Part shown: positions 8,995 through 64,000 of the stretch, one piece after another
How positions within the stretch are numbered: the stretch's first letter is position 1
Layout of the letters: the number at the start of each line of letters is the position of its first letter
Program-made: the position numbers and the translations under genes
The notes under the pieces: model-generated
Told to the model about the DNA's origin: nothing
The model's database searches: none
What the model saw: the letters and a program-made list of their open reading frames with translations, nothing else
Source of the DNA: Tetradesmus obliquus
Taxonomy: Eukaryota > Chlorophyta > Chlorophyceae > Sphaeropleales > Scenedesmaceae
Direction: 5' to 3'
Assembly: GCA_030272155.1 (NCBI GenBank)
Contig: CP126194.1
Coordinates: 4,145,501-4,209,500, forward strand
Length of the DNA: 64,000 nt

Positions 8995-10310
8995 TGAGCA
9001 TGGCTGAGGCCAAAGTCAGCCACCTGCGCAGTAGCAACGGCGACAGGCGTGTGATGCTTGGTTGTGTTGTGATTGTTTCTTTGACGGCAAATGAGTTGCT
9101 GTTGTGTCATATGTGCCAATGTCTGTCCTGAACTGCAAGCATACTGCACCCATGCTGAGTCAGCACACCCTGGCCCACCACCCTAGCAGCCACTAGCCAC
9201 GCCGCACTCTACACAAATCACTCCTCTTTAACACACGCCCTGCTGTGTTATAGCTCTCACTCTCACCTTGACACGCACAGGGTCCAGTGACGCCACCAGC
9301 ACATTGCGTGCACCGATTCCCCACACCACACAAGTTACTACTGTTTCACAACGTCCCTGCTGTAATGTTGCTCTCACTCTCACCTTGACATGCACCGGGT
9401 CCAATGACGCCACCAGCACATTGCGTGCAGCGAGGTCCCTGTGCAGCACTCCGTCAGCACCCAGCTCAGCCATGGCTGAGCAGACCTGCTCACACATGCT
9501 GAGCTTCACGCGCGTGCGCAGGAACTCCCCGAAATGCAGCAGCACCTTGTCCAGGCTGCCTAGCGCCACCAGCTCCATCACCATGTACTCATTTCCTTGT
9601 GTGTCCTGGGACCACCTGGTGAGGGTGCAGCAGGTACATGATGCAGCAGCAGCAGCAGCAAAAGCAGCACCAGAGGAGCCAGTGATGGCAAGTTTTGAGA
9701 GCTTGTCTATGAAATCACATACATTGACAGGTGGCCCAGCCATGCCCTACAGCAACAGACAGCAGCTCCATCACCATGTACTCATTGCCCTGTGTGTCTT
9801 TAGACCACCTGGTGGTGAAGAAGCAGCAGGCACATGCAGCAGCAGTACCAGCGGCAGCAGCAGCCAGCCCAAAAGGACTGCAGAACAGTTACACTGTCCA
9901 GCAGCAGCAGCAGCAATTGCCGCCCCGGATAGCCCTGCTTCACCCCGCCCACCTGTAGAACTGCACCAGGTTGGGGTGCGTGCCCAGCTGCTGCATCAGC
10001 CGTGCCTCCGTGACCAGCCCACCACCGTGCATGGCCACAATGGCCACAGCTGTGTTGTGCCAGCTGCCGCGCCACACGCACTTGAAAGAGCCGCGGCCAA
10101 TAATTTGGTGAAACACAAGCTCACTGAAGGGCACGAAGGAGCGGCTGCGCAGGTGCTGCTGCTGCTGCTGCTGGTGGTGGTGGTGGTGGTGGTGGTTGTA
10201 GGCAGAGGATGCCCTGCAGCATGGACGGAACAGCAAAAAGTGAGCGTCCTCCGGGCGGTATTGTGAGCGCAGGTTGTGCGGCACGTTTGCGTGGTGGCAG
10301 GTGCACGGTG
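8340..10310 (-). CDS. Tyrosine-kinase-like protein kinase with WNK-like lysine placement
   Basis: Four exons carry the kinase core. The first (about 10310-9953; its 5' boundary is uncertain) has a His/Gln tract, the glycine loop IGRGSFKCVWRG and helix-C glutamate in TEARLMQQL. Exon 9615-9384 has the catalytic loop HRDLAARN. Exon 9023-8790 has VADFGLS, a poly-Ser activation-loop insertion, PVRWAAPEVL and SEVWAFGVVLWEVF. Exon 8522-8340 has the C-lobe CPREVYQLMLHCW and QPEQRPSFTDIL. Phases close across these exons (2, 0, 0). The beta-3 VAIK lysine reads VAIV (codon at 10036-10038), while the glycine loop carries K (10081-10083) at the WNK position. HRD, DFG and APE are intact, so activity is plausible. 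It is probably a Ser/Thr or dual-specificity TKL kinase. Upstream exons are unresolved. Two exon-edge duplications lie in its introns. Confidence 0.8.
9252..9312 (-). repeat. Echo of the donor edge of the kinase catalytic-loop exon
   Basis: This stretch repeats 9369-9430 with about 118 bp spacing. On the minus strand it still reads ARNVLVASLDP followed by VRVKV and a donor-like GTGAGAG. It lies within the intron 3' of the real exon, between the catalytic-loop and DFG exons. Confidence 0.8.
9764..9814 (-). repeat. Echo of the acceptor edge of the kinase catalytic-loop exon
   Basis: This repeats 9571-9621 about 193 bp away and still encodes QGNEYMVMELL on the minus strand behind an acceptor-like CACCAG. 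It lies in the intron between the glycine-loop exon and the catalytic-loop exon, so it could serve as a cryptic acceptor. Reading on from the copy reaches unrelated sequence. Confidence 0.8.
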
Positions 10311-10455
10311 CAACTGGTGCAGCTGCTGCATCGCTGCCGCCACTGACGTGGAACATGCAACGGAACAATGTGCGCACATATGCCACACATGCATGCAGCT
10401 GGGTTTTGTGGCGTTGGGGATGCGTTGCTGCCTGCTGGGAACCGGTGTGATCACC

Positions 10456-11038
10456 TGAATGAGTCCTCAGATGGGGATGCACTCGTTGCATCTGCTGAAA
10501 ACGCTGCGTGGCCGTAGCATGCTGCAGCAGGCACATGCGTCAGCCCTGCTGCTGGGTGCTGCAGTACTGCTTTGCTGCTGCGCAGATCCGTGGCTGAGTC
10601 CCAGATGCTTGCTTTGCTGCCTGCTGCCGTTGCTGGGCGTGCTGCTGCCACGAGCTGGCCATATCTAGCACGTGCTCCTCCTCGTGCAGCGGGACTCGGC
10701 TGGCGCTGCTGGCCAGGCCATGTGCTCCGCTGGCTATCACCTTGGACATTTGGCTGTCTCCAGCACCACCTACAAAGTTGACACGATGTCAGATATTAGG
10801 TATAAGCTATCAAAACAGAAAATATTATGCTGTACGGTGGCGCCGCTAGACGCAGGGAACATAAGAGACTCACCAAGGCATCGTGCCTCAGCTCTGTCAC
10901 TGAGCCGGGTGCCCCATCAAGCACTCTTAAGTGACGTTTTGCGATTATCTCATAGTCACGGCATGGCACCAGCAGGCCCTGTGTGGTCTTTTGGGCCGAG
11001 GGCGATATGAAGAGATTTGAGTCGACCTGGGTGAGCAA
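10456..11038 (-). other. Possible upstream exons of the kinase gene
   Basis: Two stretches look protein-coding. One is about 11038-10875, which includes DSNLFISPSAQKTTQG and RDYEIIAKRHLRVLDG and ends at a strong donor CCTTG/GTGAGT. The other is about 10769-10456, which starts behind a TTTGTAG acceptor, includes HEEEHVLDMASSWQQHAQQR and ends near a CAG/GTGATC donor. I could not make the reading phases close between them or into the glycine-loop exon, so the N-terminus and start codon of the kinase remain unknown. Confidence 0.35.
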
Positions 11039-12260
11039 GATCGTGGTGAGCTGGTGTGATTCGTCTAGTAAGAGTCTGTCATCATGGTGCCGCTGAAATG
11101 CAGGCTTGTGGCGGCCTCACCAGGTCCAAGCTCTGTCTGCTTGCTAGTGACGGAGACAACTGCTGCTGTTAGCCCCCTTCAAGCTATTCTAAACGTTTGA
11201 AAACAATATTTGCGCTGCAGTGGAGAGGATCAGCGGGCGCAGCTAGGGGAAAAAGTCTGTTGCAGCATTTCCAAGCAGCTGCTGGCATGACACGGCTGTT
11301 ATACCTGATCAGACCCGTTGCTATCGCCTAGCGTGCGCTGCAGCCGGGCTCATTCACCAGACATCGCCGTACGACACGTTATAACATTTGGTCCTTTATA
11401 CACCGTTCGATTTCCTTGTCAACTACTGCATGCATCCCAACAATGATGCCTAATAAAGTAATCAAAAGCGTATGAAGTGTCATGCGTGCTACGACCCTGC
11501 GTGTAACCAGCACAACAATGGCACCTGCACCTGTTCCTGCTTTTTGGTCATGACAGGCATGTCTGCAGCTCATGGCTGCTTGCTTGCCTCCAGCAAAGCG
11601 TTCGTGATACGGATATCAAAGCAATTTTCGTAATGTGGCTGCTTAACAATGGCTGGGCGCCTGTCTGGCACCTGCGCCAGCAAGCTCCAAGCCTGCTGCA
11701 CTGCTGCAGCTGGCCGCAGTCCGCAGCCTGGAGGACCCCCGCAGCATGACAAACCAGTACAGCTACCTAGCCAGCTGCGCGCAGACGGAGAGTCATGGCA
11801 TGCACAGCTACGATAAGATGTCGTAAACCTTCCCTTTCCTCTATTTTGACAGCGTTGAAGTTCAAGGGCCCTTTTCACCAACAGAAAACATGTACTGCTT
11901 GTTCGGCACTGCCATTGACGCGTGCCTAAGCCCAGCACTTGTATTTTAACAAAACAACTCACAGCAGCATATGCTCAGCATCGCTGGTCAAATGACATTC
12001 CGAGCATTATTCTAGCTGCCTGCAGGTGCCACCTGCAGTGACTGCCGCTGTTCAACTGCTCACAATGTTACTGATACTAAATAATCAAGTTGCCTCAACA
12101 TCCTCAACACCTACTCAACGCACAGCTGTTGCTGCAGCAAAACACAGAACATGTACAAGAAGTAACCTCTTGCCCATCAAGCCACCAGCCACCCTCCTCA
12201 CATTCAAACTCTGAGCAATGTGCTTCGCCTGAACACACCGACAACGCCGCCTATTCATGG
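11039..12260. other. Intergenic or 5' region of the kinase gene
   Basis: No convincing complete frame. A minus-strand frame at 11570-11962 ends in a plausible helical stretch (QQAWSLLAQVPDRRPAIVKQ), but without partner exons I could join. The stretch must contain the promoter of the leftward kinase gene and the 3' flank of the leftward giant gene. Confidence 0.35.
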
Positions 12261-16724: not shown

Positions 16725-16774
<50 letters not shown>

Positions 16775-19700: not shown

Positions 19701-20053
19701 TGCGCACTCAGCACAACTGCACTATCGTCCCCACCGCCACTGCTGCTGCTGCTGGACATTGGCCATGCATTATTCCATGCATAGCCAGTGCTGTAACGCT
19801 TATCTTTCATCCCATTCCCTGCCTGCCAACCAACACTATCAGCAGCAATGCCAAGCCCTGCTGCCCCAGGTAGCCATGGCATGCGGTGCAAGCCCTGACA
19901 CACCTCATCTGCTGACACCAGAAATGCAGGCAGGCGATCAATCAGCAGCTGCGGCGCGGCAGCCGCCAGCAGCTGCACTGCTGTGGCAGCATCTGGCAGC
20001 TCTGCAATGCTGCTGTACAGCTTCAGCAGAGCCTTCTGCAGCCCTGCAAGTGG

Positions 20054-20085
<32 letters not shown>

Positions 20086-24893: not shown

Positions 24894-27800
24894 ATGGCTT
24901 TCTCCTTTGGGGCCAGCAGCACACCAGCTTTTGGAGCAAGTAGCGCACCAGCCTTTGGAGCCAGCAGTGCACCGGCCTTTGGAGCCCCTGCATCGAGTGC
25001 AAGCGGCTTCTCGTTCGGCTCCTCACCAGCATTCGGCACGCCTAGTAGCACCCCAGCGTTTGGAGCTCCCAGCAGCAGCACCCCAGCATTTGGCGCCAGC
25101 AGTACACCTGCCTTTGGAGCAGCAACAAGCAGCGCGCCGCCATTTGGTGCTGCCACCAGCACGCCAGCATTTGGTGCTGCGAGCAGCACACCAAGCTTCA
25201 GCTTCAGTTCAGCTCCTGCCTTTGGCCAGACAGCTGCTCAGACTGCAGTAGCACCATTTGGTGCCTTCGGGCAGCAACAACAGCAGCAGCAAGCGCAGCA
25301 GCAGCAAGCGTTCACTCACGCCACAAAGTTTGATGATCTGGATCAAGCAATGAAGGATAAGCTCACACAAATACAGTGAGTGCAGGAAGTGTCTGATACC
25401 GGCATGAGCTGACTGTTTCCGCTCGTTTCGTTTCGGTCTGTGCATATCATCGGCCCCATTGTAAACATGCACCAGCTGCTGCAGCTGCGACAGCATAGCA
25501 GCAGCACAGCAGCAGCAGTAGCAGCAGCAGGCCCGGGCGCTACACACCACGCAGCTATGTTGCAGCAACCTGTGCACGCCAGCTAAAGCGCCCTGCGCAG
25601 GAGCACAGCTACATGTCAGTTGCAACCACGAGGGTGGCATGCAGAGCCAGCGGGCAAGGCGCTACCACAGGGCTGGTTGTGGCCAAGCAGGCAACACACT
25701 AACCATGGCCTGCCCCTGACACTGCGCCGTTGTACTACTGCTGTGCTGTGTCTGCCTGCAGGGACCAGATCAGCAAGTATGAGGCAGACAGGCAGAGGGT
25801 GATGCATGCTGAGCACTTGCAGGATAACACGGCACTGCAGCAGGTGTGTGTGCGTGCGTACGCGCAGAGCGGGATAGACAGATGCAGCGCTATGAAGCTG
25901 TGTAGGGTGTGTGTGGTCGGGACACATGCTGCTGCATGTTGTGCGCTGCTGCAGGACTGTGCAGCTGCCTGCGGCAGACGTACAGCAGCTGCAGCAGCCT
26001 GCTGCAGTGGCCAGGGGTGGCTCTTTGTGATCGCTTCACAAGGTAGCACAGCTGTAGCTGTAGCAGTCCAGCTTCTTTCTCAAGCAAAGCAGCGAGGTCG
26101 TGCCGCTATGTCACTGTTGCTGCTGGTGCTGCCGCAGGGTCTTGATGCGGACACGAGCAGCCTGAGTGCGGAGCTGCGGCAGCTGCAGGCCTCCATCAAG
26201 GCTGAGCAGGAGGGGCTGGCTGACTTCAGGGAGGTGAGACGCTGCTGCTGCTGCTGCTGCTGTTGCTACTGCTGTTGTTTGTGCACCAACACGCGGGTAT
26301 TTAGAGTGTGTGGTGACATGTGTGTTGCTGACCGAGGTTGGTGTCTGCCTTGCTGTACGTTGACACACTTGCGCCTTGGTGCCTTGGTGCTTGTTGATGT
26401 TCCTCATTTTGGCCGATCTCAGAACTCAGCATCGTTTGCACAACGTCACTAGCGATATGCCGGCACTACAGCAGCAGTATTGAACCTGGTGCACGCCCTG
26501 CAAGTGCTTTCCCCATATGCACAGCTGCCACCGCCAGCATGTCAGCCGGTGCTGTCACTGCCACTGTTCTGGACTTGGAGCAAGCAGCAGGCAGCTTCTT
26601 ACACATGTCTCCTGCTGTTGTTGTAACCTTGCAGAAAGCCATCCGCCTGCTGAAGAGCACAGAGACAGTCGTGCGAACGTATGAGCGCACCAAGTTGTGG
26701 CGTGACGCGCCAGCCATGTACCAGCGTGAGTGGCTGGGTTAAGCATGCACACATATAGTGGGTGTGTGCCAAAAGGTAGAAGCATGGGTTTCACAATTGC
26801 AGCAGAAGTGAACACAGATACAGCAGCACGTCGTCTTCCCCCTGCCCTGACCGCAACACGTGCACCTACATGTGGCACGGGCACCCCCGCCAGCTGCACC
26901 GAGCTGTCATGGTGTCAGGGCGGCTGGCAGCTGCCCTCAGCTTGAAGCACCGCAGCTGCCTGATCCTCTTGTTGCTTACTGTCATCTACACTATTTGTGC
27001 ACTGCACACATGATGCAACACTCTCTTGTTTACTTGCAGGCCAGGAGGCGCTGAAGCCGGCGCAGCAGGAGCTGCTGCACCAGCCCGTGGTGCTGCCCGG
27101 GCCCTTCCTGGAGGAGGCTGTGGCGGGCTTCAGCAGCAACTGCGCGGAGTACAGCAGGTGCCTGGAGGAGGTGGAGCAGGTGCGGCGCTGCGGGCATGTC
27201 AAGTGCTTAGCAAGGCTGAGAAGGTGTGCTGGGCACATGGATAACCAGCAGGCGCCTGGAGGAGGTGGAGCAGATGGTTGGGCAGCCTGGGGTCACAACG
27301 AGCGGGGTTGGCAAGGTTTAGAAGGTGTCGACAGCAGTGTGCTGGCCAAACAGATAACCAGCAGGTGCCCGGAAGAGGTGGAGCAGGTGCGGCACGGCAT
27401 GCAGGGAGTCAGATGCGCACAAAGTGTTGTATCATTTCTGTGGTGCGATGTGCCGCTCGGCTGGCTGCGCTGCGACTGAATGCAGTGGCACACGGCTAAA
27501 TCAATCCATTCAAATTCACCACACGTCACTAGACTGCTGGCGCGCGCTGCTGCTGCAGGTGCTGGCGGCGTCTTCCCTGCAGGAGACGCCTGCTGGGGAC
27601 GTCAATTGGGTGATGGCGCTACCCACGGTGGTTTCCAACATGCACGACTACTTTGTGGCCACTGCCGCAAAGCTGGAGCGCACACACACAGAGGTGAGGC
27701 TGTGTGGCAACAGTGCGCGCATACAGCGGCTGTGCTGGTTTATGTTGGTAGGCTAGGGCCTGATGCACTAACGCGGTTGTTGGCGTTAGGCATGCTGCAG

Positions 27801-36306: not shown

Positions 36307-39300
36307 GCAGGCTGGATGGAGGAGGTGCTGATGGGCAACATCATCGACTATTTGAAAAAGCGGGAGGCAGATGACCAGCCCTTCTTCATGTACTACCCGT
36401 CCTTCTCAGTGCACGCGTGAGTGGCGCTGCTGAGGGGTGCCTGTGCAATGATATATAAAGATGGACAGTCTAGCATGAAAAATGCAAAGTTATATATGCA
36501 GGTGGTTGGTTTGTCACACCTGCACAGTGAAGGGCAGAACCTGGAGCAGCTAACGTGTAGGTGACACGTACCCAGCAAGCAGCACGGCTCACAACAACAC
36601 TCGCCAGATATTGTCAAGCTTGAAGCACCTGTTCCTCTTGTCAATGAAGTGCGTCACTAACATGAGCTACATATGCACGTATGACAGTGCATAAAATGTG
36701 TGTGTATTGCAGTGGCTGGATGCGCTCCGCCGATGATGGCCCGCGCTTCCAGCGGCCCGCGCCGCCCAAGTACACGCGCAAGTTCCAGAACTTGTCGCTC
36801 AGCGATGATACAGCCAACCTGTACGCCATGCTGGAGTACTTCGACGACCAGGTGGATTGACCATTATCATATATTGATTGCGTAGAATAGAATACAACTC
36901 ATACTCCGCAGCAGCAGCAGCAGCAGCAGCAGCAATAACAGCAGCAGCAACAGAGCAGCTAGAGCGGCTGCCGGCCGTGGTGGGCTCGAGACAGGCGGAA
37001 CTTGCTCTGCAACAAGAACTGCGCGCGCAGCGGGCCTGTGCTGTGCGCCCCACTTCAAGGCACAAAGACGATTGTGCCCCAGCACATGCATAGTCGTAGC
37101 TGATTCGCGCCGGGCTTGACATCCAACCACTCGTCTTTTTCGTAGAGCGGGAAATGCGGTTGCAGCACCGTCATGACAGCAGTCATAGACAGCAGCATGA
37201 ACCTCAGCTGTTTGGGTTGTGATTGTGTGCGTGTGCTGCTTCCGCAGTTTGGGCGGCTGCTGCGCTACCTGGAAAGCTCCAAGCTGGCTGACAACACCTA
37301 CATCATGATCAGCGGAGACAACGGTGCGGCTGGCACCAACAGCTGTCTTGTACAGGAAGCAGTACATGCATTGGCAGCTGAATCAATGGGTTATTGTATT
37401 GTGCAGTGCAGAAACTCTGAAGGTGGTGTGCTATCCATTGTGTGCGGCATGTGTCTTGCACTTGCCACCATCATCTGAGCATGTCGCAGCACAACTCAGG
37501 CTCAGGGATCCAAAGAGCTGACATGCATTGGTTCGATTGGTGTGGCTTGCATTGCAGGTCCAGCATTGTTCCAGCATGAGTCAAAGCCGCTGCCAAGAGT
37601 GGTGAGTGATTGCAAATCGAGCTGGCTGGCAGCTGCTGGCAGCATCAATACATGTGCCACACAACTCCGGAAAAAGCAAGCGCAGCCAAGCACATAGGCC
37701 AAACACAGTACAATACAGCGCTACAAACACAGCAGACCACCCAACCTTATGCAAGGGCACATCATTGCCAGGAGCTGTGCAGCTGTGCTGCATGCTGTGC
37801 ATGGCCACCCCTGGTCATGATGTTCAGAGTTGTCAGCAGTGACACCGACCAGCGTTCTCATGTTCTGCATGATAATGCTGTTGTTGCTCCCTCTGCAGGT
37901 GCGCATGCCCAGCGGCATGCAGGGCGCCAAGAAGACAGTCATGGAGGGGGGCGTGCGCAACTTCCTGGCAGTGCGCGGCCCGGGCGTGGCCCAAGGTGCC
38001 AGCAGCGATGCGCTGCTGGGGCTGCTTGATGTCTCTCCTACCCTGGTGGAGCTGGCAGGCATCGCGCAGGTGAGATACAGCGCGAAGACTCATGTGTGAT
38101 TATTGTACGTTGTATGGCTGCTTGACGTTACGCCAACTCCAGTGGAGCTGGCAGGAATCATGCAGGTATGAGTTGGCGTTTTTGTTAAATGTTGTGGCTT
38201 ATTAATATGTTGCATGGCTGCTTGATGTCATGCCCACCCTGGTGGAGCTGGCTGGAATTTTTCTCGCAGATCAGAACAATCATGATTTGGTGGGGGTTAT
38301 TGGGCGGCTGTTTGCTGTGTATACTATGGTGGAGCTGAATGCATGCAGTGTCATGAGTGAGCGGCCACCTGTTGTATGTTGTGGTGTGTGTGCTGCTGCC
38401 TAGTGTTCGACAAGACACATGCTACGCACGGATGCATGTTTTAACACGGCACGGCAGCCGATTGCCCAATCATCGTCAACCTCAAGCTGCCCTGCACCGG
38501 ATCGCTGCCTGCCTGTTAGCAGGTGCCGCAGCACCTGCCATGGCATTTTGTGCATATCACATCGTACATATGTGCTGCCTGCCACATGCGCCCTGCACCT
38601 GCTTGTTTGCCACTCTGCAGGTGCCGCAGCACCTGCCGTGGGATGGCATCAGCTTTGCCAACATCATTCAGGGGCAGGCGCCCTCGCAGCAGCAGCAGGA
38701 GCGGCTGCTGTTCAGCATGGAGACCACCTGCATCCAGGAGGACTTCGTGCCTGCACTGGGGCCGGACAGGTGCGCTGCTGCTGCTGCTGCTGCTCTCTTC
38801 ATTACATAAAGTGTCAAAGTATGCGCGGTCTTGCCACAGCAATTTTCACCTTCAGGAAGATGCTGAGCAGCAGACAGTACAGCATGGCTTACTGATTGTG
38901 GTGTTGCTGGAAGTAGCAAGTTGCTGATGTCAAGTGTGTATGACTGCTGTGCAGGCAAACGCTGAAGCCGCAGCCGCTGCTGGACTACAACACAGGAGGG
39001 GTCCGCGGCAAAGGATTTAAACGGTGCGCACGGGCGCATGCGGCTTGCGTGTGCTTACAGTTGTGTCTTGAACATAATGCTGGTCACGCTGTGCCGCTCA
39101 TGTCTCTTTGCAGCGCGTGCAGCTGGTGTGTCTGCTGCTGTTTGATGGGTATGAGCTGTATTGTACTGCCTGCAGGTGTATTGGAGTGCGGTACAAGCAG
39201 TACAAATGGCTGGCTGATGCACGCAAATCCAAGGGCAGCGGGCCAAGCTACACGGCAGGCAACGCAAGCGTGCCAACAGCGCTGTACAAGTTTGGGGACG

Positions 39301-41062
39301 GCCTGCACCTGGAGCTCCCTTGCATGGAGGTGTGAGAGCGGGAGAGACAGCAACTTTGAGTTTTGCCGTTTTACCTGAGGCATGCGTACATGCATGCAAG
39401 CTCTGCGCTGTGTTTTTCCTGGCTGGTGACCATACAGGCCGCTTCATTGCAACCGTACATGCAACACATGCTGATCTGCCCAGCATATGTCGTGCTTCAC
39501 TCAACGGGCCAGCAAGCAGCTTGCCTCAGGTTGGCCTGAAACTGGGACTTGCTGCCTCATCCTACATGCAACATGCACACGCCCTGCCTCTGTCACGCCT
39601 CGCTCAACAGGTCAGCAAGCACGAGCCGGAGATGCTCCACTTCTTGGAGCAGTCTGCAGAGGCCTATTTTGCTGCCATGCTGGCCAGCAGCCACAGCTTT
39701 GAAAAAGCGCTGTTCTACATTGGGCTGCACGGAAGGCCGGGCACCAATATCGTGGCTGATGGTGCGATTGAGCGCACTCCTGCAAGGGTGAAGGTGCTGC
39801 CCATGGGGCTGTCAGGGTTTTTGCGCAAGGGTGACAGCGCATCGTATCGCGTTAAGGTGGGTTTGCAGTGCTGCTGGGCGCTGCAGGGTGATGAGTTGGG
39901 CATTGATTAAAGCTGGACTCTTCCTGCACACTGTGTTTTGCATATGTGCTGCCTTGGTATGTGCAGCGTGGTGTAGTGGGCGGCTTGATGCGATGCTGAC
40001 GCTGCAGCCTCCTGCTGACTGGCAGGTGCAAAGCAGCTGTTGCTGCCGTGTGACATGTACACGGCCAGTGTGCTTATTGTCGCACCTGTTGCTCTGCTTT
40101 TCTGGCTGGACGCAGGTTGTCACAGCGGGCCAGTATGAGATCACTCTGTACTACCAGTCTGATGAAGCAGCAGTGTTCAGGCTGTGGGTGGGGCCCTATT
40201 CAAAGATCCAAGACGGCACGGCCATGCACCTTGATGCAAGGCTGCCAGCAGATGTGAGTAATATGCATGTGTAACCAAGTGCATGCAGTCAAATGCAAGC
40301 CCTGCTGTGGCGGCGGCTGGCCAGCAACTGTATTTGCATGGTGCATGTACTCCTCTGCACACACTAATGACATGAAGAGTAGACAGCTCTCTTGAAGCCT
40401 GGCTGCCTGGCTGCATCGTGGTTGCATCGCCCACACACATTTACTAGCAATTGGCAGGGGACCGCTCATCGTGATTTCTTTCCGGGGTATGCCAATACCT
40501 TGCTTGCACATCCCTCATCTGGAAACGTCCCTGTACACAACTTCCTCAAACATATTCACCTTCTGCTGCAGCCCAACAAGCGCCACGTGGAGACCATTGG
40601 TACGCTGGCCCTGCCAGCCACACCACCAGGCCAGTCATGGGAGGTGAAGCTGGAGATGGTGCAGGGCAGCGGCAGTCTGCGGCCAGCCATCAAGGCACTG
40701 GACACCATCTTCTTCAAGCGTGTGGTGAGTGTGCTGTGTTTACATTTGGAAGTGGATGTAGCCCTGCTTGAGTCAAGCATGTGAAGTTCTTCAGCATGGA
40801 ACACTCCGGTTGTGCCGCTGCTATTATGCTGCAGCCAACATATGTTGCATCAAAATGGTCATGGCTGAGTCCAGCGCAAAGTAGAACAGCTGCTAGAAGA
40901 CCTGCAGAGGCCGCTGCCTTCTGGTTTAGTGCTGCTGCTGAAAATGGTGATTCACCTGTGCAGGGTGCTGCGGGGCCCATCACACATTACGACCCCAATG
41001 CACAGGAAGGCGTCCGCAGCTGGAAGATCACACACGGCTACAAAAATGTGGTGGGCGGGTGA
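33730..41062 (+). CDS. Membrane-anchored type-I sulfatase with C-terminal beta-rich extension
   Basis: Eighteen exons close in phase to 750 aa: 33730-33826, 34468-34561, 35059-35210, 35425-35463, 35656-35764, 36000-36103, 36311-36416, 36713-36851, 37248-37323, 37558-37601, 37899-38069, 38621-38769, 38955-39023, 39176-39329, 39611-39856, 40116-40253, 40458-40724, 40964-41062. An uncleaved signal anchor ([16 protein letters not shown]) precedes [10 protein letters not shown] (metal ligands D61, D62), the sulfatase signature [11 protein letters not shown] with Cys105 as formylglycine precursor, FGKWHNG (K156, H158) and MISGDNG (D304, N305). It would need a formylglycine-generating enzyme. Arylsulfatase domains are ~500 aa. 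The last ~250 residues ([21 protein letters not shown]) look beta-rich, perhaps carbohydrate-binding. The likely site is the Golgi, vacuole or cell surface, acting on sulfated glycans; the substrate is unknown. Three junctions have intronic echoes. Confidence 0.88.
36261..36305 (+). repeat. (CTG)15 directly before a splice acceptor
   Basis: A pure run of 15 CTG units lies in sulfatase intron 6 and is followed at once by TGCAG and exon 7 (start 36311). It occupies the position of the polypyrimidine tract. Confidence 0.95.
38114..38258 (+). repeat. Two echoes of the donor edge of sulfatase exon 11
   Basis: The end of exon 11 (38017-38069: CTGCTTGATGTC...GTGGAGCTGGCAGG) recurs at about 38114-38165 and 38213-38258, spaced about 98 bp. 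The first copy keeps a donor-like CAG/GTATGA, and the second runs into GGAATTTTTC. Both are inside intron 11. Confidence 0.85.
38518..38545 (+). repeat. Echo of the acceptor edge of sulfatase exon 12
   Basis: GCAGGTGCCGCAGCACCTGCC occurs here (after GTTA) and again at the real exon start (38621) about 100 bp later. It shares intron 11 with the donor-side echoes. Confidence 0.8.
39453..39519 (+). repeat. Echo of the acceptor edge of sulfatase exon 15
   Basis: The stretch with TACATGCAACACATGC and CACTCAACGGGCCAGCAAGC matches 39561-39624, which includes the functional acceptor AACAG/GTCAGCAAGC at 39611. Spacing is about 105 bp. The copy reads CGGG where the acceptor has CAGG, so its splice site is broken. 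Confidence 0.75.
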
Positions 41063-48682: not shown

Positions 48683-48728
<46 letters not shown>

Positions 48729-50063: not shown

Positions 50064-50096
<33 letters not shown>

Positions 50097-50098
<2 letters not shown>

Positions 50099-52115: not shown

Positions 52116-53123
52116 ATGCGTGCTAACCCTTGTAGTGTTGTCGCTGCTGCTGCCCCTTCTGCCGCAGGCCTGCTGCGCTCCAGCCCGCTGCCAGCAGCAG
52201 CCGGCCGCCGCAGCCTATCAGCCATGGCAGTGGCCGCGCCTGCAGCAGCAGCGCCCGCCAAGGACTTTGCAAAGGAGGCGCATGGCTTTGAGCTGGTGCA
52301 GCAGCAGTTTGTGCGCGAGTACGACTCGCATGTGCTGATGTACAAGCACAAGAAGACAGGTATGTGGGCACAGCAGCAGCTGGCATGCGCGCCCGAGCGT
52401 GCAAAGCAGTTGGGCACAAACGCGTGGTGCTTCGAGTGCTGCTGGGGTGCTTTGTTACGCACTGCGAATGGGCATGGCTCGCACAATCAGCAGCAAAGTT
52501 TAACATGTGCAGAATCCGCATCCTGCTCCTTTGCTCCTTTGCGGCTGCTTCTAATGCCATGCCGTGAAAACCCATGCTGAGATGTGGTGTCAACCTGTGC
52601 TCAGCTCTAACCCATATGCGCCCTGCCTGTGTGCAGGAGCCGAGCTGATCAGTGTGGTCAACGGCGACGAGAACAAGACCTTTGGCGCTGTCTTCCGCAC
52701 GCCAGTCTCCGACAGCACCGGCATCCCCCACATCCTGGAGCACAGCGTGCTGTGTGGCAGCCGCAAGTACCCCATCAAGGAGCCCTTTGTGGAGCTCATG
52801 AAGGGCAGCCTGAACACCTTCCTGAATGCATTCACGTACCCGGACAGGACCTGCTACCCTGTGGCGTCCACCAACACACAGGTGCGACAGGCGGTGTTGG
52901 GCTTGCGTCCACGCGGCAGTTGAGTTTTCTTCGTGCAAGCAGCAGCTGTGCTGTCCTTGTGTGCTCCCCATGTCTTGCAGCAGCTGCGGCGCCAACCCAC
53001 AGTAGCACACTCCTGAGTTATGTGTTTCTTCTCTGCTGCTGCATTGCAGCCGCAAGAGTTTCACAACCTGGTGGACGTGTACCTCGCGGTCGTGCTGCAC
53101 CCGCGCTGCAACTTCATGCATGC

Positions 53124-53161
<38 letters not shown>

Positions 53162-53237
53162 ATTGTACCGCAGGATTTCCACAACCTGGTGGACGTGTAC
53201 CTCGACGGCTTGCTGCACCCGCGCTGCAAATCCATGC

Positions 53238-53274
<37 letters not shown>

Positions 53275-53361
53275 TTGCTGCGTTGTACCGCAGGACTTTT
53301 ACAACCTGGTGGACGTGTACCTTGATGCCGTGCTGCACCCGCGCTGCAACTTCATGCATGC

Positions 53362-53426
<65 letters not shown>

Positions 53427-53524
53427 ATTGTACCGCAGGACTTCTACAACCTGGTGGATGTGTGCCTCGATGCCGTGCTGCACCCGCGCTGCAACCAATA
53501 TGCCTGCTCTGCTGTTGCTGCTGC

Positions 53525-53561
<37 letters not shown>

Positions 53562-53655
53562 TCGTCGCACCCGCAGGACTTCTACAACCTGGTGGACGTG
53601 TACCTCGATGCCGTGCTGCACCCGCGCTGCAACCAATATGCCTGCTCTGCTGTTG

Positions 53656-53687
<32 letters not shown>

Positions 53688-56600
53688 TCGTTGCACCCGC
53701 AGGACTTCTACAACCTGGTGGACGTGTACCTCGATGCCGTGCTGCACCCGCGCTGCATCAGCGACAAGCGCACCTTTGAGCAGGAGGGCTGGCACCTGGA
53801 GCTGGACGATGCACAGGACCCGCTCAGCTACAAGGGCGTGGTGTTCAACGAGATGAAGGGAGTCTACAGCAGCCCTGACAGCATGTTCTACCGCGTAGTG
53901 CAGCAGGTGCGGGACTGCGGCGGTAACCTTACGTGATCTGATTCGACGACACTGCCTGCAGGTGTGCTCAGACTAGCTGTCGTATTTACGCTGCTACCAA
54001 ACAACTTGCTGGCCTGCTCGTCTGCTCCTTGGCCTTCCAACCTGACCCTGAACTGCACACACCGCCACAACACATCGCCAGGCGCTGTTCCCTGACAACA
54101 CCTACAACCACGACAGCGGAGGCGACCCTGAGGTCATCCCGCAGCTCACTTTTGAGCAGTTCCAGGACTTCCACGCGCGCTACTACCACCCCAGCAATGG
54201 CCGCTTCTGGTTCTACGGGGATGACGATGCAGACAAGCGCCTGCAGATCCTGGACGCCTACCTCGGGTGGGTTCGGGGTGCTGGTCGTGGTTAGGCCGCC
54301 TTAACTGCTGCACTGCGCGTCGCGTACCTCGTATGGCTGAGGCACAAACTTCTGGAAGCCGCTAATATTGATGATACGCTAGTCGTGGAAGCAAACTCTG
54401 GCATGCGTTACATGTAGCTGCCTGCAGCAGCAGACCAAAGAATCGCACACCCCTGACGTGACTGCATTGTGCCACCGCCTGCTGCTGTGTTGTTGCTTCC
54501 ACCCCTGTGCGTGCAGCGAGTTTGATGCGCGCCCCGTGGACAGCGACGTGGCCACGCAGCCGCTGCTGCCGGAGCCGCGCAGCGTGACTGCTCACTATGC
54601 TGCCGGCGAGGCTGAGGAGGGTGATGGCAAGGTAGGAAGGGAGGCAGCAGCAGCTGGCGCGATGCATGCACCTGAACACATTAGTACACTGTGTGTTGCT
54701 TCTGGTCAGCGAACCACATCTTCATCAAACAGTACACACTGCTAACTGGTAATCAAAGCGTCTTGCTTCACCTCCGGCGCCTGTGCCCACATCTCCTGTA
54801 CCGTTAACAGCAAGACATGTGCCACATGTTTCGTTCCTCCGCAGGCCTATGCCTCGCTCAACTGGATGCTGACCCGGGAGCCGCTGGACGTGATGAAGCT
54901 GGCGCTGCTTAGATCATTCAAATCCTAAAACATCTACTGCTGGGCCTCAGCGCTGTGCTAATGTTTTTCCCTCTGCAGGCCTACGCGTCCCTCAACTGGG
55001 TGCTGACCCAGGAGCCGCTTGATGTTGAGACGGAGCTGGCGCTGGGCTTCCTGGACTACCTGCTGCTGGGCACACCCGCTGCGCCGCTGCGCAAGGCGCT
55101 GAACGACAGCGGCCTGGGCGCGGCGCTGGTTGGCGGCGGCGTGGATGATGAGCTCAAGCAGCCCATCTTCTGCGTGGGGCTCAAGGTGTGTTGCGTTGGT
55201 GATTCCAACTGAGCTGAAGCTGCTATCGTCTGCAGCTCACATGCATGCATGTATGGCGTGCCAAGAGAAGCCGGCCTGCACTGCTAGCTGCTGTGGAGAA
55301 GCTCATATTTGCCTGCGCTAGAGCCCAATGTGCCTGTTTCACACACTATCCGCTTGTTTTGTTGTCTTCTGCTGCAGGGCGTGGAGCCCTCCAACACTGC
55401 TGCTGTTGAGAAGCTCATCCTGGACAAGCTGGCAGAGCTGGCAGCCACAGGCTTTACTGCTGGGGCCATTGAGGCAGCCGTGAACACCATCGAGTTCAGC
55501 TTGCGCGAGAACAACACCGGCAGCTTCCCTAGGGGGCTCAGCCTGATGCTGCGCGCTGTGGGGGCGTGGATCTACGGCAGGGACCCCTACACACCCATCC
55601 AGGTGCGGCAGCGACAGCTGGTGCTGTACCAGTTGCTGTGTACTGTTAAGTTTGGTGTTGTGATTTGTGGGATGCTTTGGGAGTGAGCTGCGTCAGCTGC
55701 CAAGGATCACTGGACATACTGCAACAATGGCGGCGGTGGCGGTGCACAGCAATGCGCAACATGAGGGGCAATGGGAGACGCACAGCAGCTTGTGTTGTTT
55801 CCGCTGGCACTCACGCCAGCGGCGCCTCAACCATTCTAGTCATAAACTCCCAACACACACGTCACCATGCACTATTCCACAATAATAACATTGCACCAGC
55901 ACTCGTCAACATGCTCTTTGTCGTGTGCATGATTCAAACGCTCACCTGTGCAGTGGGAGGAGGCACTGAACAGCTTCAAGGCCAAGCTGGCTGGCGGCAG
56001 CGACGTGTTTGGCCCGCTCATCCACCGCTTCCTGCTGGACAACCCTCACCGCATCAGCGTGGTCATGCTGCCAGACAGCGCACTGGCAGCAAAGACCGAG
56101 GAAGGCGAGAAGGCTCGGCTGGAGGCCATCCGTGCACAGCTGTCAGAGCAGGAGGTGAGCCTCGTTAGGAGCTGTGGGGTGCAGGCTCGTGTTTGTGTGC
56201 GTGTTGTGTGCTTGTTTTCAGCTGCACATTACATCGGGCCACGGGATAGCTCTTCTTCCTTGTTTGCTGTGGGATGGGCATGTTGGTTGGGTGCTGGGCT
56301 GCAGATGTCCGGTGAGGCAGCATGTGCAGTGACTGGTTCTGATACATGTCAGGATCACTGCCTGCTTGCTGACCCTTGCCCGCCTTGCACCTGCTGCTGC
56401 TGCTGCTGTTTGGTGTCTGCAGCTGAAGCAGGTGGTGGCGGAGACAGCAGCACTGAAGGAGCGCCAGGAGACACCAGACCCTCCCGAGGCCCTGACATGC
56501 ATCCCATCCCTGCAGGTAATGCCAGCTACGGTTTACTGTACATAACCAGCTTGTGCAGATATCACATGTCAGTGCGCTATAGCTTGACCCAAGTTGCAGC

Positions 56601-58408
56601 AGGGGTTGTTCCGCTGACAGCCAGCATGCAAAGCTTGACGCCGCACACAGATGAAATCAAACTGGGCTTGTTGTGTTCGGGCTTGGCATGGTCTGTAGGC
56701 GGGGAAAGCAAGGCATTGTACATGTGCATGCTCAACATATGCTTCCACGGTCCCTGCTGCTGCTCACCCAAGCCCACTGGTTGTGTTTGCTGCGCATTTC
56801 TGTGCAGTGTAATCTGACTTGCGCAGCTGTCGGACATCTCCAAGACCATCATCAAGCCAACTGTTTGTGCTTGCTGCTTCTTGTGCTGTGTTTTGAATGT
56901 AACCGCAGCTATCAGACATCCCCAAGACCATCACCAAGATTCCCACAGCCACCAGCGGCTTGGCAGGCGGCGCCACGCTGCTCACACACGAGCTGTTCAC
57001 AAATGACGTGCTGTACGCGGAGGCAGCATTGGACATGAACGGCCTGCCTGCCAGCCTGCTGCCGCTGCTGCCGCTGTTCTGCAGGAGCCTCACGCAGGTG
57101 GGTGTTGGTGACAGTGAGATTGCAGTTTGCATGTAGAAGAATGCATCATCACCATTTGGTGTGTATGATTACAGCAGCAGATGCAGCAGCTTGAGTCCTA
57201 TCAGTTCAGGTGTTTCGACAGAGGCAGCAGCTTGCTGTAGCATGCATGCATTGCACGTGCCAATAAGTGTGCATAGAGCATTGTGCGGCAGCTGGTGTTG
57301 CCTGCTTGTGCATGTGCCGCTGCCACCCCTGACAATTCATCTGCACCCGCTGCTGCTGCTGTTCCTGCTCCATTCTGCGCCTCCTGTCATAAACCACAAA
57401 CAGATGGGCACGCAGAAGGAGTCCTTCATTGAGCTCACGGAGCGCATCGGGCGCAAGACTGGCGGCATCAGCGTGTACCCCTTTACCAGCGCCAAGCGCG
57501 GCCAGGAGCAGCCCGTGTCGTACCTCATGGTGCGTGTGTGAAATTACAGGATGTGAAACTCAATGTTTTTCGAAAGCACTGTGCAAGAGCGCATGTACAG
57601 CGCAGCTGGCTCATGCTTGTTGAGTTGCATAATGGACACACTGCTGTTCACCCCAGCAGCGACATCCTGCAGCCCTCCATGTTGACACCGAGCATATCAT
57701 TGCACCTTGCCTCACCTCATGCTGCGCAACCCATCCTGCTTTCTTGTCCTGTTGTCTTCTTCGTGTGCAGTTGCGCGGCAAGGGCATGGGCCACATCAGC
57801 GGCGACCTGTTTGAGCTGATGCCCTGAATTCCCATTACACATATGTCAATGCTAACATACATCTGGTCACTAACATCTCACTGTCTCATGCAGGTGCGCG
57901 GCAAGGCCATGGGCCAGTACAGCGGCGACCTGTTTGAGCTGATGGGCGACATCCTGGCCACGGCGCGCCTGGACGACAAGCCGCGCTTCACGCAGATGGT
58001 GGCGGAGACCAAGGCCAACATGGAGGCGGGCATCATCGGCAGCGGCCACAGGTGCGGCGATATGATGCATGTGGCGCACAGGCAGTTTGTGCAAAGTGCC
58101 TTGTGTTTCTTAACAGTGTCGCCTCAAGCTCAATACGTATTGAGTATACTATGCACACGTTTGCTTGCATGTAAGCCTGGCATGAATCGACGTCACGCGC
58201 ACAGCAACGTGCCATACCTCAACATGTGCCCTGTCTGGCTGCGCTACGTTGCTGTGCTGCAGGTATGCCGCCAGCCGCCTGGCTGCGCAGCGCTCCATTG
58301 CCGGCTGGGTGGGCGAGGCCACCGGGGGCCTGAGCTACCTGGAGTTCATCAGGGGGCTGGCCAAGCGCGTGGAGGAGGACTGGGAGGGCGTGCAGGTGGG
58401 GGGGACAG

Positions 58409-58440
<32 letters not shown>

Positions 58441-60179
58441 AATGTTTGTGTGTATATGTCGCTTTTTATCGTGCATGCAACAAAGGTTGTGCAAGCATCA
58501 TTAGATGTGGCAGCAACGAGTGACCGACATTGCTGTGCAAGCGAGTCGCAGCTTGCTTCATGTCCAGCATCCTCACTCTCTGCACTGCCTCGTGCTCATG
58601 TTGTTCCCTCACCACAGGCGGACCTGGAGTCCATCCGCAAGCACCTGCTGCAGCGCAAGGGTGCACTGGTCAACCTCACCGGTGACGACCGCGCGCTGGC
58701 AGCAGCAGCAGCACACGTGGACGCGCTGCTGACGCGGCTGCCGGAGGCTGCAGCAGGTTCCAACGGCAGCGGCTGGTCGGGCGTGCTACCTCGCGTGAAC
58801 GAGGCGCTGGTGGTGCCCACACAGGTGGGTGGGTGTGTTGGGGCAGGGGGAAGGGTTCTTGAGGCAGTCAATTGGTTTTGTGCATTGGATTGCGGTTTGT
58901 GCACTGGGTTACGGGTGAACAGTGGCAGACACTATGACATGTTGAGCCCGGGTGGTGCCTACAGAGGTGTGTGTGGGGCTGGCTGAAGAAGTTGACTTGG
59001 CTCGCATGCAGTAGGATGGTCGACTGAACAGGAAGAATGCAGCAAGGAGGCGGGGAGCGACAGGCAAGTAAAATTATCATCGTTGCGTCCCGTCAATCGT
59101 CCCTGGCCCTGCTCTGCTCTTTCTTCATGCCGCCAGGTCAACTATGTGGGCAAGGCAGCCAACCTGTACGCTGATGCAGGCTACCAGCTGAGCGGCTCCG
59201 CGTACGTGATCGAGAAGCACCTGGGCACCAGTTGGCTGTGGGACAAGGTCCGCGTGGTGGGCGGCGCGTATGGCGGCTTCTGCTCCTTTGACAGCCACAG
59301 CGGCATGTTCACATTCCTCTCATACAGAGGTGAGTGCAGGTTTAATGCTTGTGACAGCAAGCGCTGGTAGCTGGGTGTTTTGTGTGTCAAGTGCTGCAAT
59401 AGCTTCGAGTGCTGTGTGTTGGTAAGGCTTCTGCTCCTCTGACAGCCACAGCGGCATATTCACCTTCCCCTCATACAGGGGTGAGTGCGGCGGGTGGCAG
59501 TGACACTGACAGCAAGCTCTGGCAGGGACTTTATGACATGCCCGGTAGTCTCATCCTGCTGTGCTAGCACATGTACTACATTACAATGCAATTGTGTTCG
59601 AGTGAGGTGCAGCAGGTGATTAGCGGCACTGCAGCCGTTTGACTTCTCAGCGTTTCAGTGCTTGTTGGCGCCCCTGCTCTGCTTGCTGGCTGAGCATTGC
59701 TGCAGCCAACTAGCGTCAGCCTACCTCCCTGCCTTGCTTGCTCACTGCCAACTCTGTTGGTTCTGCATTCTGCAGACCCCAACCTGCTGGACACGCTGGA
59801 GGCCCCTGCTGACGCCTGCTACAACACCCCCACAGCGAATCAACCATTCACCTGCACCTCCCACCTTGCTGTTACATCTGCTGTCGAATCTGTTATCTCA
59901 TGTCTGCAGACCCCAACCTGCTGGACACTCTGGAGGCGTACGATGGCAGCATTGACTTCCTGCGGGGCGTGGAGCTGGACCAGGACGCACTGACTAAGGC
60001 CATCATCGGCACCATGGGAGACCTGGACGCGTACCAGCTGCCCGACGCCAAGGGATACACAGCCTTCTCCAGGTACGGCTCAATTTAGCAACTGTTCCAC
60101 CGCTTTGTATGGCTGGTGTGGTGTGATGCAGCTGAAGCGGTATCGACAGCGTGAAGTTGCCCGTGTGTTTGTAAATCCT

Positions 60180-60219
<40 letters not shown>

Positions 60220-60527: not shown

Positions 60528-61439
60528 GGCGGGGTGCAGTGTTGGGGCGGGGAGGGGTGGGGAGGGGATTCCCCTCTGGGAGGTGTGGCTTGGGATGCTG
60601 CAGCAGTTGTGAAGTTGTGTTGGGACTGGGGGTTGGTTTGCAGTGTAAGCAGGGGTTGATAACCTGTTTGGTTGTGCACATGTGTTGTGTGCAGTGTGTG
60701 TACACAGGATTGTTGTTACTGATGCTGTATGTGCTGCTGACGCACCTACGGGTGCTGCTTTGAGAAGGTTCAACCGCTGTACACAACCGCTGTACACAAC
60801 CGCGTTGCAGGTGTGTTTGAAATCGAGTGCTGCGACCCTCAGATGTCGAACTTCTCCCATGCTCTCTGGTTGTAATTTCAGTTTTGAGGACAAACCAAAA
60901 CAACAGCTGGGCCTCTGGCACAGTCAGCATTTTGCGTCGGTTGTAGGTTGTAAGTCCATGGTTTCTGCTTGCTCAGCCTGTGGCTACAGTTCTGGATGCT
61001 TGGCAACATCACTTATGTCAATGGACTCTCGCGCTGTTGGCAGTCGTTGCGAATGGGCGAATGTGCCTCACTTGCTCTTGGCATGTGACAAGTCTGCGAG
61101 TAGGCTGGTGCATGCTCCAGAGCAGTGCGCTGTATGGTGCCACGTGGCCCGTCAGCATACCTATCAAATCATACGGACACTATCAAACCTTCAAATCTCG
61201 CTTTCTGTTGGTCCCGCCCCGTGTAGCATTGAACAGAGGCGTGTCTTGGGAAGGGTGTAGTGATGTGGTCACTTCCTTGGCATGACACCAAGCGCTACGT
61301 TTCCTGGAATCCAACACTAAAGAAGTAGTTGAGTCGCCAATAAGCGTCCAAAACACGTTACGTTGCTTGTATCTAGCAGCAGATCTCGACGTTGACGTGC
61401 AGCTTGTGACTCTTGCAGCACCTTTTCACTATTCCAGCC
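60528..61439. other. Intergenic region downstream of PreP
   Basis: About 0.9 kb with no convincing gene. It holds the PreP 3' flank with a TGTAA motif and a short tandem repeat (CAACCGCTGTACA twice near 60770-60800). Confidence 0.45.
60644..60648 (+). terminator. Possible PreP polyadenylation signal (TGTAA)
   Basis: TGTAA, the common polyadenylation signal of chlorophycean algae, occurs 117 nt after the PreP stop codon. A five-base match alone is weak; the position is what makes it plausible. Confidence 0.35.
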
Positions 61440-63790
61440 ATGCATCTATCGACACACTGTAGATCGATGCAATTGCAGCGGTGCAGTTCCGGTTTGCCGA
61501 AGCTGCAGCCATGCATCTCGGTGAACTCCGTGAGGACAGCACGACGGACACTGCGTGTGCGTGCCAGCGGAGATGACGAAAACAAAACGGAGAAAGAAAC
61601 GAAGGCAAAAGAGGGGCGCTACAGCAGGATGGTAGAGGAGCTGGCGAAGACTGGCATGACTCCTGCCAAGGCCAAGGTAGACAGCTGCTCAATAATTGCA
61701 AAGCTGGCGTCTGCAAAGCACAAACCAACAACGTAGATGTCTGCATACAACACGTATCTTATACGTACACGACCAGTGCATGGATAGCAGTCACAGCAGT
61801 GACAGGACTGGCAGCACTGTCGCTGTCATCGCTTCAGCTGTTGCTGCTGCTGCTCCTGATGTATCCTTGCACTCAGCCACATGCTACTGTGCCTGAAGGC
61901 ACCTCACAGCAGCTGCCCCCATCTGCAGCAGCAACGTTGGCCGTGCATCCACGAGTCATGTCTGCCCCTCACGGCACCTTGGACATGCCCGTGTCCTGCT
62001 GTGTGCCACTGCAAACAGCACAACTCATTCTGAGCACTCCTCGTCATCATGGCAGCCAGCCACAGCAATCAATAATGCCATCATGATGTCACCGTGACTC
62101 TGCAATATGTATCTTGCAGGACACGCTGCGCATTTGGGCTGAGCTGGGAGCAAAGGACCCGGAGCAGTTGAAGCAGCTGCTGGTCAAGCGCTCCATGGCG
62201 CCGCTCACAGCGCTGGCAGCGCAAAGCGTGCTGGACTTTGTGGCATGTGGAGGTGAGCCAAAAACTGCAAGCCGCACCCTTGGACAGCAGATGACAGATG
62301 ACAGCGTGTCTGGCAGCAGCAAGACTCCTCAGTGCGTGTGGTGCCTGGGCTACCGCGCAGCGGACAGCAGTCAGCAACCATGCTGTGCTGCGTATCTCAG
62401 GCTCACCTTGCAAGGATAAAACAGCACGAATTGTTTAATGGTCCATCCCATAGCCTGCATGCATCATTTCCTATAAGATAATCAAGCTAAGTGTGAACAC
62501 TTGCAATGCGCACTGTGCAGGCGGCTTCTACATTGGCCGCATCTCCAGCCAGGCTGACTTTCCTGGAGCTATCCTCATCAGCCTGGTGGGATACTTCTTC
62601 GCGTGCTACTACTTCCTGCAGGTGAGCGCTTGGATGTCAACCTGCCAATTGCACAGACGTTACGCTGCAAGGCATTCTCCATGAGTGTGCTGTACATAGT
62701 ACCTGAATCTAGGGTTCGCGTTCATGCTGCCAGTTTGCTGGGTAAAAGCAGTATGCTTGCACATAACCATGCCTAAGCCATACACAGTATTATAAATGCA
62801 TGTGTGGTTTGCAGTCAAGCTCTTACAACTGTAATTACAGTGTGTCAGCTGTGCACCTGGCAGCTGTGCACTGCATCACAGCAGCGCCCTGCTGACCACG
62901 GCCTGCTTGCACCGCCCTGCAACAGGCTGCATTCCAAATCACTGCTCTCACCAGCCTCAGCATGGCAGCACGCCGCTACTCCACAGATGCTGCCGTGCTG
63001 CTGGAGGCTGTGCGGCAGCTGGCTGGACCGGCCAGTGGGCTGTCTGTGGTCGACTCGGCCACGCTGGTGGTTAACACACTCAAAGTTATCCAAACGCTGG
63101 AGAAGATTGGGGAGCAGCTGCAGGTGCGGCTGCAGGACTGATGGACTGTGGGTGCGCCTACATATTGTGTGGTCAGTGAATCCCAACCGCCAGCAGCGCG
63201 CTTGAGCCTGACGGATTGTGGGGGCTTGGTGATGTCTGTGTGCCTATTGCCGCTTCCCTGGCCGGCGCCGCTACTGAGCTGTGTGTGAGTGACTCGACAA
63301 CGCTGGGGTCAGCACACTCAAAGTTATTCAAACGCTGGAGAAGATTGAAGAGCAGCTGCAGGTGCGGCTGCAAAGCTGTGCATTGTGTTTAGGAATGCTG
63401 CCCCAGGAAGTTGCTTTGCGTGCCTTGACACAGTGTTGTTGAGGACCATCTTTACAGACGCCTTGCACTGGTGCTCACAGGACACCCCATCATCTTACAA
63501 TCAGACTGTTTGGCAGCAGATCATGCAGCAGGAAACCATGATCTGCAGCAGTTCATGTACCCGCTGCTGCCGGTATCCACAAACTGCTTGTAGGACATCA
63601 CGGCCGGCGCCAGCAGCCTGGCCAACCTGTCTGCCTACCTCACGCTGCAGCGGGCAGAGGAGGTGTATGGCTTCCAGCCTGACAAGTACGGCCTGAGCGA
63701 GGCGCAGGCGGCTGACATCGCGGGCGTGTTCAGCCGCTACGATACGAATGAAGATGGCAGGCTGGAGCAGAGCGAGCTGCGGCAGCTGTG
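61440..63790 (+). CDS. Putative plastid EF-hand, membrane-associated protein (3' end uncertain)
   Basis: Five exons close in phase: 61440-61676, 62120-62252, 62521-62621, 62926-63123 and 63594-63790, about 288 residues so far. The N-terminus is Ser/Arg/Leu-rich with RTARRTLRVRAS, like a chloroplast transit peptide. The middle has a helical segment (LRIWAELGAKDPEQLKQLL), a glycine-led hydrophobic stretch (GFYIGRISSQADFPGAILIS then LVGYFFACYYFLQ, a likely membrane span), and a coiled region (VVNTLKVIQTLEKIGEQL). The last exon has FSRYDTNEDGRLEQSELRQL, one canonical EF-hand loop (D-N-D-G-E). Either it stops at TGA 63792-63794 or it splices at TG/GTGAGC and continues past the window, probably with a second EF hand. 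I do not recognise the exact family. Confidence 0.65.
63287..63372 (+). repeat. Echo of the donor edge of exon 4 of the EF-hand gene
   Basis: ACACACTCAAAGTTATCCAA and CGCTGGAGAAGATT...GAGCAGCTGCAGGTGCGG at 63074-63130 recur at about 63312-63371 with a few substitutions, keeping the donor CAG/GTGCGG. Spacing is about 241 bp. Confidence 0.9.
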
Positions 63791-64000
63791 GTGAGCAGTA
63801 GAAACAGTGCATGACGTCATGCGCAATGCGTGCTGCACCAGGGCGTGCTACACTGAAGAGTACGGGCGGCTGGGCAGAGCGAGCTGCGGGGGCTGTGGTG
63901 AGCGAGGAATGCGGCTGAGCCAGCCAGGGGCTGGCTTGTGGCGTAATGTCAGCAAAAGTGCTCGGTAGTGCTGGCGGCGTATCCATTTGCATGCTGGTTG
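63791..64000. other. Right edge: intron or 3' flank of the EF-hand gene
   Basis: Apart from the echo at 63862-63906 I see no exon. The window ends before any further exon could be recognised. Confidence 0.4.
63862..63906 (+). repeat. Echo of the donor edge of exon 5 of the EF-hand gene
   Basis: GCAGAGCGAGCTGCGG, then CTGTGGTGAGC occurs at 63771-63796 and again about 107 bp downstream, including the donor-like TG/GTGAGC. The second copy lacks the EF-hand loop upstream. Confidence 0.85.

What the first reader, a model, noticed from the sequence alone, without database searches (positions are those of the whole stretch)
9252..63906. Recurrent 'exon-edge echoes': splice-junction segments duplicated inside adjacent introns in six genes
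Seen directly: about twenty diverged copies, mostly 30-190 bp with spacings of about 80-240 bp, lie next to the exon edge they resemble. They occur in the kinase, the giant gene, NUP58, the sulfatase, PreP and the EF-hand gene, on both strands. Most keep the AG acceptor or GT donor plus exon bases; many then reach a stop or frameshift. Two introns (sulfatase intron 11, PreP intron 15) have echoes on both flanks. Tandem duplication of sequence carrying a splice site is a proposed route to new introns and alternative exons, but I know of no described genome where it marks so many junctions in 64 kb. Inference: an ongoing duplication process focused on splice junctions, or weak selection against intronic tandem duplications.
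Basis: partly seen in the sequence, partly recalled or inferred. Interest (0 to 1): 0.88.

Follow-up and report, generated by a model that had tools for sequence, protein, structure and literature searches.

The report
Decaying tandem copies of exon ends
Many genes of this alga-like genome carry short, decaying, side-by-side copies of their own exon ends, left by a widespread duplication process with a fairly uniform unit of about 120 bases; they probably stand out there because coding DNA preserves one of the two copies, not because splice sites are targeted.

Summary
The window has 16 clusters of local direct repeats, 13 beside a coding-exon end. PreP homology fixes several as intronic copies. 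Three other sampled regions (250 kb) show the same; 100 pairs at score 20 or more over 314 kb, none in two shuffles.

Where testable the duplication includes intron flank: 40 of 51 anchored flanks are homologous. Differences fit a free echo beside a constrained exon. Unit length is narrow: 122 of 192 first-neighbour pairs at 80-170 bp, mode 110-120, 7 at 30-80.

Splice-junction focus is partly supported. Junctions are covered (88 of 503) more than exon midpoints (13 of 152), intron midpoints (18 of 175) and intergenic points (68 of 1944), but stop codons, without splice site, equally (10 of 58). Four of those ten are doubtful, so the control is small. Simulated random duplication predicts more intron-only and intergenic copies than seen. 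I favour size-restricted random duplication, tolerated at exon ends and kept visible by the constrained copy; a preference for coding DNA, or junction-linked breaks, is not excluded. Gene models are my own HMM; no RNA data, no relatives.

The parts
9202..9433 (-). kinase gene: 117-bp tandem duplication over the catalytic-loop region (84% identical)
   Evidence: strong kinase Pfam hit
9567..9814 (-). kinase gene: exon-start copy in adjacent intron, period 193, 89%
27152..27393 (+). FG-repeat nucleoporin-like gene: three copies of an exon end, spacing 94 and 113
38020..38258 (+). sulfatase: exon end plus two downstream echoes, spacing 96 and 100
   Evidence: weak sulfatase Pfam hits
38489..38644 (+). 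sulfatase: exon-start echo upstream of exon 38621, period 101
39456..39621 (+). sulfatase: echo reaching 6 bp into exon 39616, period 107 (weak pair)
53050..53757 (+). PreP: six copies of one exon start separated by CTG-rich stretches; the last runs on into the conserved protein
54818..55044 (+). PreP: echo upstream of exon 54979, period 136
56769..56938 (+). PreP: echo upstream of exon 56909, period 84
57766..57944 (+). PreP: exon-start echo that runs into a stop codon, then the conserved exon, period 123; region single copy in the genome
59275..59488 (+). PreP: exon end 59329 and its donor-side echo in intron 59330-59909, period 151
59723..59937 (+). PreP: acceptor-side echo in the same intron, then exon 59910, period 133
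63019..63372 (+). EF-hand gene: exon end plus 68 bp of intron copied downstream, period 239, 85%
   Evidence: weak EF-hand Pfam hits
63760..63903 (+). EF-hand gene: copy of the stop-codon end downstream, period 108 (no splice site)

Best explanation
The echoes are remains of ordinary local tandem duplications with a narrow unit length of about 80-170 bp, present in all four sampled regions of this genome. Shown: in most tested cases the duplicated unit includes intron flank as well as the exon end, and the copies differ as expected when one is under protein constraint and the other is free. Inferred: duplications wholly inside exons are mostly purged; those crossing an exon end survive because an intact junction and reading frame remain; one copy is then held by selection, so such a pair stays recognisable longer than intron-intron or intergenic pairs, which fade. 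Inferred and untested: the mutation is fill-in repair of staggered or paired-nick breaks about 120 bp apart, joined end to end.
For: 40 of 51 anchored intron flanks beat 95% of controls (17 of 68 sites with the echo on the exon side were dropped). Substitutions 0.13 per site on the exon side and 0.22 on the intron side, near the ratio I expect for one constrained and one free copy (expectation is my estimate). Echo-exon changes fall 161/153/316 on codon positions; 281 synonymous, 338 missense, 11 stop (the 110 rows overlap in arrays). Clean examples of 84 and 215 bp with 5 and 8 bp overlap. Stop-codon ends covered like splice sites (10/58 and 88/503). Clusters at CDS ends are also in excess of the simulation (9 seen, 3.3 expected).
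Against: The simulation, scaled to 81 clusters, predicts edge 20, intergenic 31, intron-only 15; seen 44, 7, 5. Visibility as modelled does not give this, so non-coding copies must vanish faster than simulated, or duplication favours coding DNA or junctions. Exon-side extents cluster at 20-69 bp (42 of 55 rows, some sites twice), where uniform placement would spread to about 120. In 11 of 51 cases no flank homology is detected. Aligned length is at least 0.8 of the period in only 40 of 100 pairs, median 0.64. Four of the ten covered stop codons are doubtful.
Confidence: 0.5

Rival explanations
1. Duplication occurs preferentially in coding (GC-rich, transcribed) DNA; interior events are purged, so survivors sit at both kinds of coding end.
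For: Edge, CDS-end and exon-intron clusters exceed the simulation about 2- to 3-fold (44/20, 9/3.3, 6/3.0), while intergenic and intron-only fall to about a quarter and a third (7/31, 5/15). Intergenic points are 3.5% covered.
Against: Exon-exon clusters are not in excess (10 seen, 9 expected), though purging could hide this. Extents into the exon are short.
Confidence: 0.25
2. The process targets splice junctions themselves (nucleosome phasing, polymerase pausing or splicing-coupled damage), with breaks typically 20-69 bp inside the exon and the rest of the unit in the intron.
For: Coverage peaks on donors and acceptors alike (0.178 in the first 10 exon bases against about 0.065 deeper in exons). 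Narrow exon-side extents. 44 of 82 clusters touch a modelled junction.
Against: Stop-codon ends are covered equally (10/58), with the doubts stated. For acceptors, the need to keep a branch point and pyrimidine tract could limit the extent (inference).
Confidence: 0.15
3. A mobile element or introner family inserts near exon ends with long target duplications.
For: One intergenic case: a 35-bp perfect repeat flanks an element with 49 other listed matches in the genome.
Against: Two of two coding-end cases searched, spacers included, are single copy. Only 17 of 104 spacers match elsewhere in the 314 kb, several through CTG/CAG repeats.
Confidence: 0.03
4. Echoes are functional alternative or poison exon ends.
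For: 51 of 54 keep the splice dinucleotide. One C1 pair (74971/75088) seems by eye to differ only synonymously.
Against: The overall substitution pattern fits free echoes; 26 of 110 rows have a net frameshift and 11 changes make stops. The dinucleotide count is biased by alignment.
Confidence: 0.05

Closest known systems
[quoted passage not shown] potato RdRp case, PMC4974935, passages seen)
   Same: Tandem duplication of the 3' part of an intron with the 5' part of an exon, carrying splice signals; the same potato gene also has an 83-bp duplication inside an intron.
   Different: Here the copies lie, in the PreP cases checked by homology, inside an existing intron and lengthen it; no intron gain is shown. 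Many junctions are affected.
Small tandem duplications from fill-in of staggered breaks (PMC8355091 and PMC5730883, passages seen; Vaughn & Bennetzen 2014 and Schiml 2016 seen only as citations there)
   Same: Short direct head-to-tail duplications.
   Different: PMC8355091 speaks of short (<100 bp) human events; here the mode is 110-120 bp with few at 30-80. Enzymes untested here.
Introner elements (recalled)
   Same: Affects many introns in a small genome.
   Different: No shared sequence family in the two coding-end cases searched.

Membership tests
Tandem genomic duplication spanning a splice site | direct copies of one contiguous segment covering exon and intron | tested here: met
   40 of 51 anchored flanks homologous; not shown for the other 11; clean examples
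Intron gain by tandem duplication | new intron absent from relatives | not testable with these tools
   no related genome held
Intron gain by tandem duplication | the duplicate supplies the splice sites in use | tested here: inconclusive
   In PreP intron 59330-59909 homology supports the outer sites; no RNA data
Break fill-in tandem duplication | direct orientation at short spacing | tested here: met
   96 of 253 direct pairs but 1 of 38 inverted pairs at 80-180 spacing
Break fill-in tandem duplication | dependence on end-joining or fill-in enzymes | not testable with these tools
   needs mutants
Introner | multi-copy insert family | tested here: not met
   single copy, 2 of 2 coding-end cases searched

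The most novel reading that the evidence does not exclude
A duplication process with a characteristic unit of about 120 bp acts on splice junctions in this lineage, with breaks at preferred distances (mostly 20-69 bp) inside the exon, implying a chromatin- or splicing-linked source of paired breaks and a steady supply of spare splice sites.
Probability: 0.15. Interest if true: 0.8.

Novelty: new variant of a known kind. Interest (0 to 1): 0.47.

Why it matters
About one in six modelled splice junctions in the sample (88 of 503) lies in a recognisable local duplication. Such copies are raw material for alternative splice sites and longer introns, and they mislead gene finders: my own HMM read PreP echoes as exons at three places. 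The sharp unit-length spectrum is a testable clue to how the duplications form.

Tried and rejected
Exon-limited copying: at first alignments seemed to stop 2-8 bp past the splice site. Anchored alignment showed that the intron flank is homologous in 40 of 51 cases. It remains possible for the other 11.

First simulation with strict scoring gave edge:intron-only near 1.2:1 against 88:7 observed pairs. With gentler scoring the observed pairs were 46:13 and the simulation 357:256, so the contrast was partly a scoring effect.

The gentler scan has a fault found late: it missed 9 of 94 pairs with periods up to 175, all with periods 72-101, so the cluster counts are lower bounds. The coverage control was therefore redone on the union of three scans (one search used the gentler scan alone: donors 30/252, acceptors 34/251, starts 6/59, stops 7/58). 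I had called the aligned length equal to the period from a mean of 1.12; arrays inflate it and the median is 0.64.

Periods under about 60 were not seen by BLAST self-comparison (culling near the main diagonal, recalled), so the spectrum was redone with an ungapped scan.

Mobile-element reading: not supported in the two cases searched.

Literature: the listings showed no title or abstract start reporting such a density or unit-length spectrum; the library is open-access only. Structure prediction, RNA-family and phage/plasmid searches were not used.

Full report
Setting. The window is G000:C4:4145501-4209500 of a 104.66-Mb genome in 17 contigs. My HMM learnt a donor like GTGAG and an acceptor like TGCAG. 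PreP matches chain 2fge best, which I recall as the Arabidopsis enzyme. A green alga is likely (inference; lineage untested). I fetched 250 kb more: 100 kb of C1, 100 kb of C2, 50 kb of C9. Statistics rest on 314 kb, about 0.3% of the genome, and on my own gene models.

Observation. Local direct repeats are plain in the window: 16 clusters, 13 beside a coding-exon end. PreP homology jumps from FLSYR to DPNLL over intron 59330-59909, which holds an echo of each flank. It also leaves the extra copies of the exon start at 53050-53757 and one copy at 54818-55044 unaligned. Two shuffles give 0 pairs at score 20 or more, against 100 real pairs.

Other regions. Pairs number 39, 89, 25 and 54 in W, C1, C2 and C9, array cross-pairs included. 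The gentler scan gives 82 clusters, a lower bound.

What is copied. Strict BLAST suggested copies ending at the splice site. Alignments anchored at the site show homologous intron flanks in 40 of 51 cases. Aligned length is at least 0.8 of the period in 40 of 100 pairs and under 0.5 in 39. In three of six arrays displayed the part between copies is largely CTG- or CAG-rich repeat, which is masked and hard to align. So whole-unit tandem duplication is the better reading for most tested cases, but a repair insert between copies remains possible in the 11 without flank homology; by eye some well-preserved pairs have no alignable flank.

Unit length. An ungapped scan free of that period limit gives 192 first-neighbour pairs: 21 under 30 bp, 7 at 30-80, 122 at 80-170, 42 above; the pooled mode is 110-120. 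Direct pairs outnumber inverted ones 253 to 38. Ten intergenic first-neighbour pairs also lie at 80-180, so I take the length as a property of the mutation (inference).

Decay. In 110 overlapping rows, 630 echo-exon differences fall 161/153/316 on codon positions: 281 synonymous, 338 missense, 11 stop. My rough expectation for a free echo beside a constrained exon is 43% synonymous; 44.6% was seen. Diverged copies cannot be an assembly artefact; the 8 of 100 pairs at 95% or more could be checked in reads.

Junction focus. Duplicate coverage peaks at splice sites. On the union of three scans: donors 43/252, acceptors 45/251, starts 8/59, stops 10/58, exon midpoints 13/152, intron midpoints 18/175, intergenic 68/1944. 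Junctions exceed exon midpoints (p 0.007) and intron midpoints (p 0.03) but not stops (p 1.0). Stops have no splice site, so the peak may belong to coding ends in general. Four of the ten stops are doubtful: two in weak genes (scores 26 and 39), two with a donor-like GTGAG just before the stop. With 6/58 the test cannot separate equality from a modest junction excess.

Null model. Uniform placement with selection and neutral decay gave 1428 detected of 2436 events: edge 357, intergenic 542, intron-only 256, exon-exon 162, CDS end 58, exon-intron 53. Observed clusters in the same order: 44, 7, 5, 10, 9, 6, plus one mixed. Edge, CDS-end and exon-intron classes are in similar excess, exon-exon is not, and purely non-coding classes are short. 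The comparison sets clusters against single events. Plain random placement of the same footprints gives edge 30-34, intron-only 11-13, intergenic 38-40 of 100; seen 51, 7, 6 with unfiltered exons and 46, 13, 7 with filtered ones. So my decay model is incomplete: either non-coding copies vanish faster, or coding DNA or junctions are duplicated more.

Exon-side extents. In 55 rows (some sites twice) the copy reaches 20-69 bp into the exon in 42, under 20 in 6, 70 or more in 7. Uniform placement would give more long ones. For acceptors, keeping a branch point and pyrimidine tract may limit the extent; for donors I have only the weaker idea that long exon-like echoes are mis-spliced. This is the main support left for junction-linked breaks.

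Known background. PMC4974935 (passages) describes a potato duplication of intron end plus exon start that gave a new intron. Small tandem duplications at staggered breaks are shown in mouse and human cells (PMC8355091, PMC5730883; passages). PMC8226300 (passages) notes long introns in Chlamydomonas relatives and discusses end joining and intron dynamics; the passages I saw do not mention this pattern.

Verdict. Real, present in every region sampled, and of narrow size; a known kind of mutation at a density and with a length spectrum that I did not find described. Junction focus is not shown to exceed that of coding ends in general.

Noticed in passing
L014:6907-7002 (G000:C2:2036907-2037002): An element of about 85 bp with 49 other listed matches genome-wide (45 of them 95-100% identical; a lower bound), including a 225-bp-spaced array near the start of contig C16, flanked here by a perfect 35-bp direct repeat.
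   Followed up: partly
window 53050-53757: Six copies of one PreP exon start, separated by CTG-rich tracts of variable length.
   Followed up: partly
C1 44782-45254 (L005:4782-5254): About four copies of a 120-bp unit, 93-97% identical, mostly within a predicted exon.
   Followed up: no
C1 74971-75158 (L008:4971-5158): Two 71-bp exon copies whose differences look synonymous by eye, a candidate for two functional copies.
   Followed up: no
window, many places: Long CTG/CAG trinucleotide tracts across much of the window.
   Followed up: no
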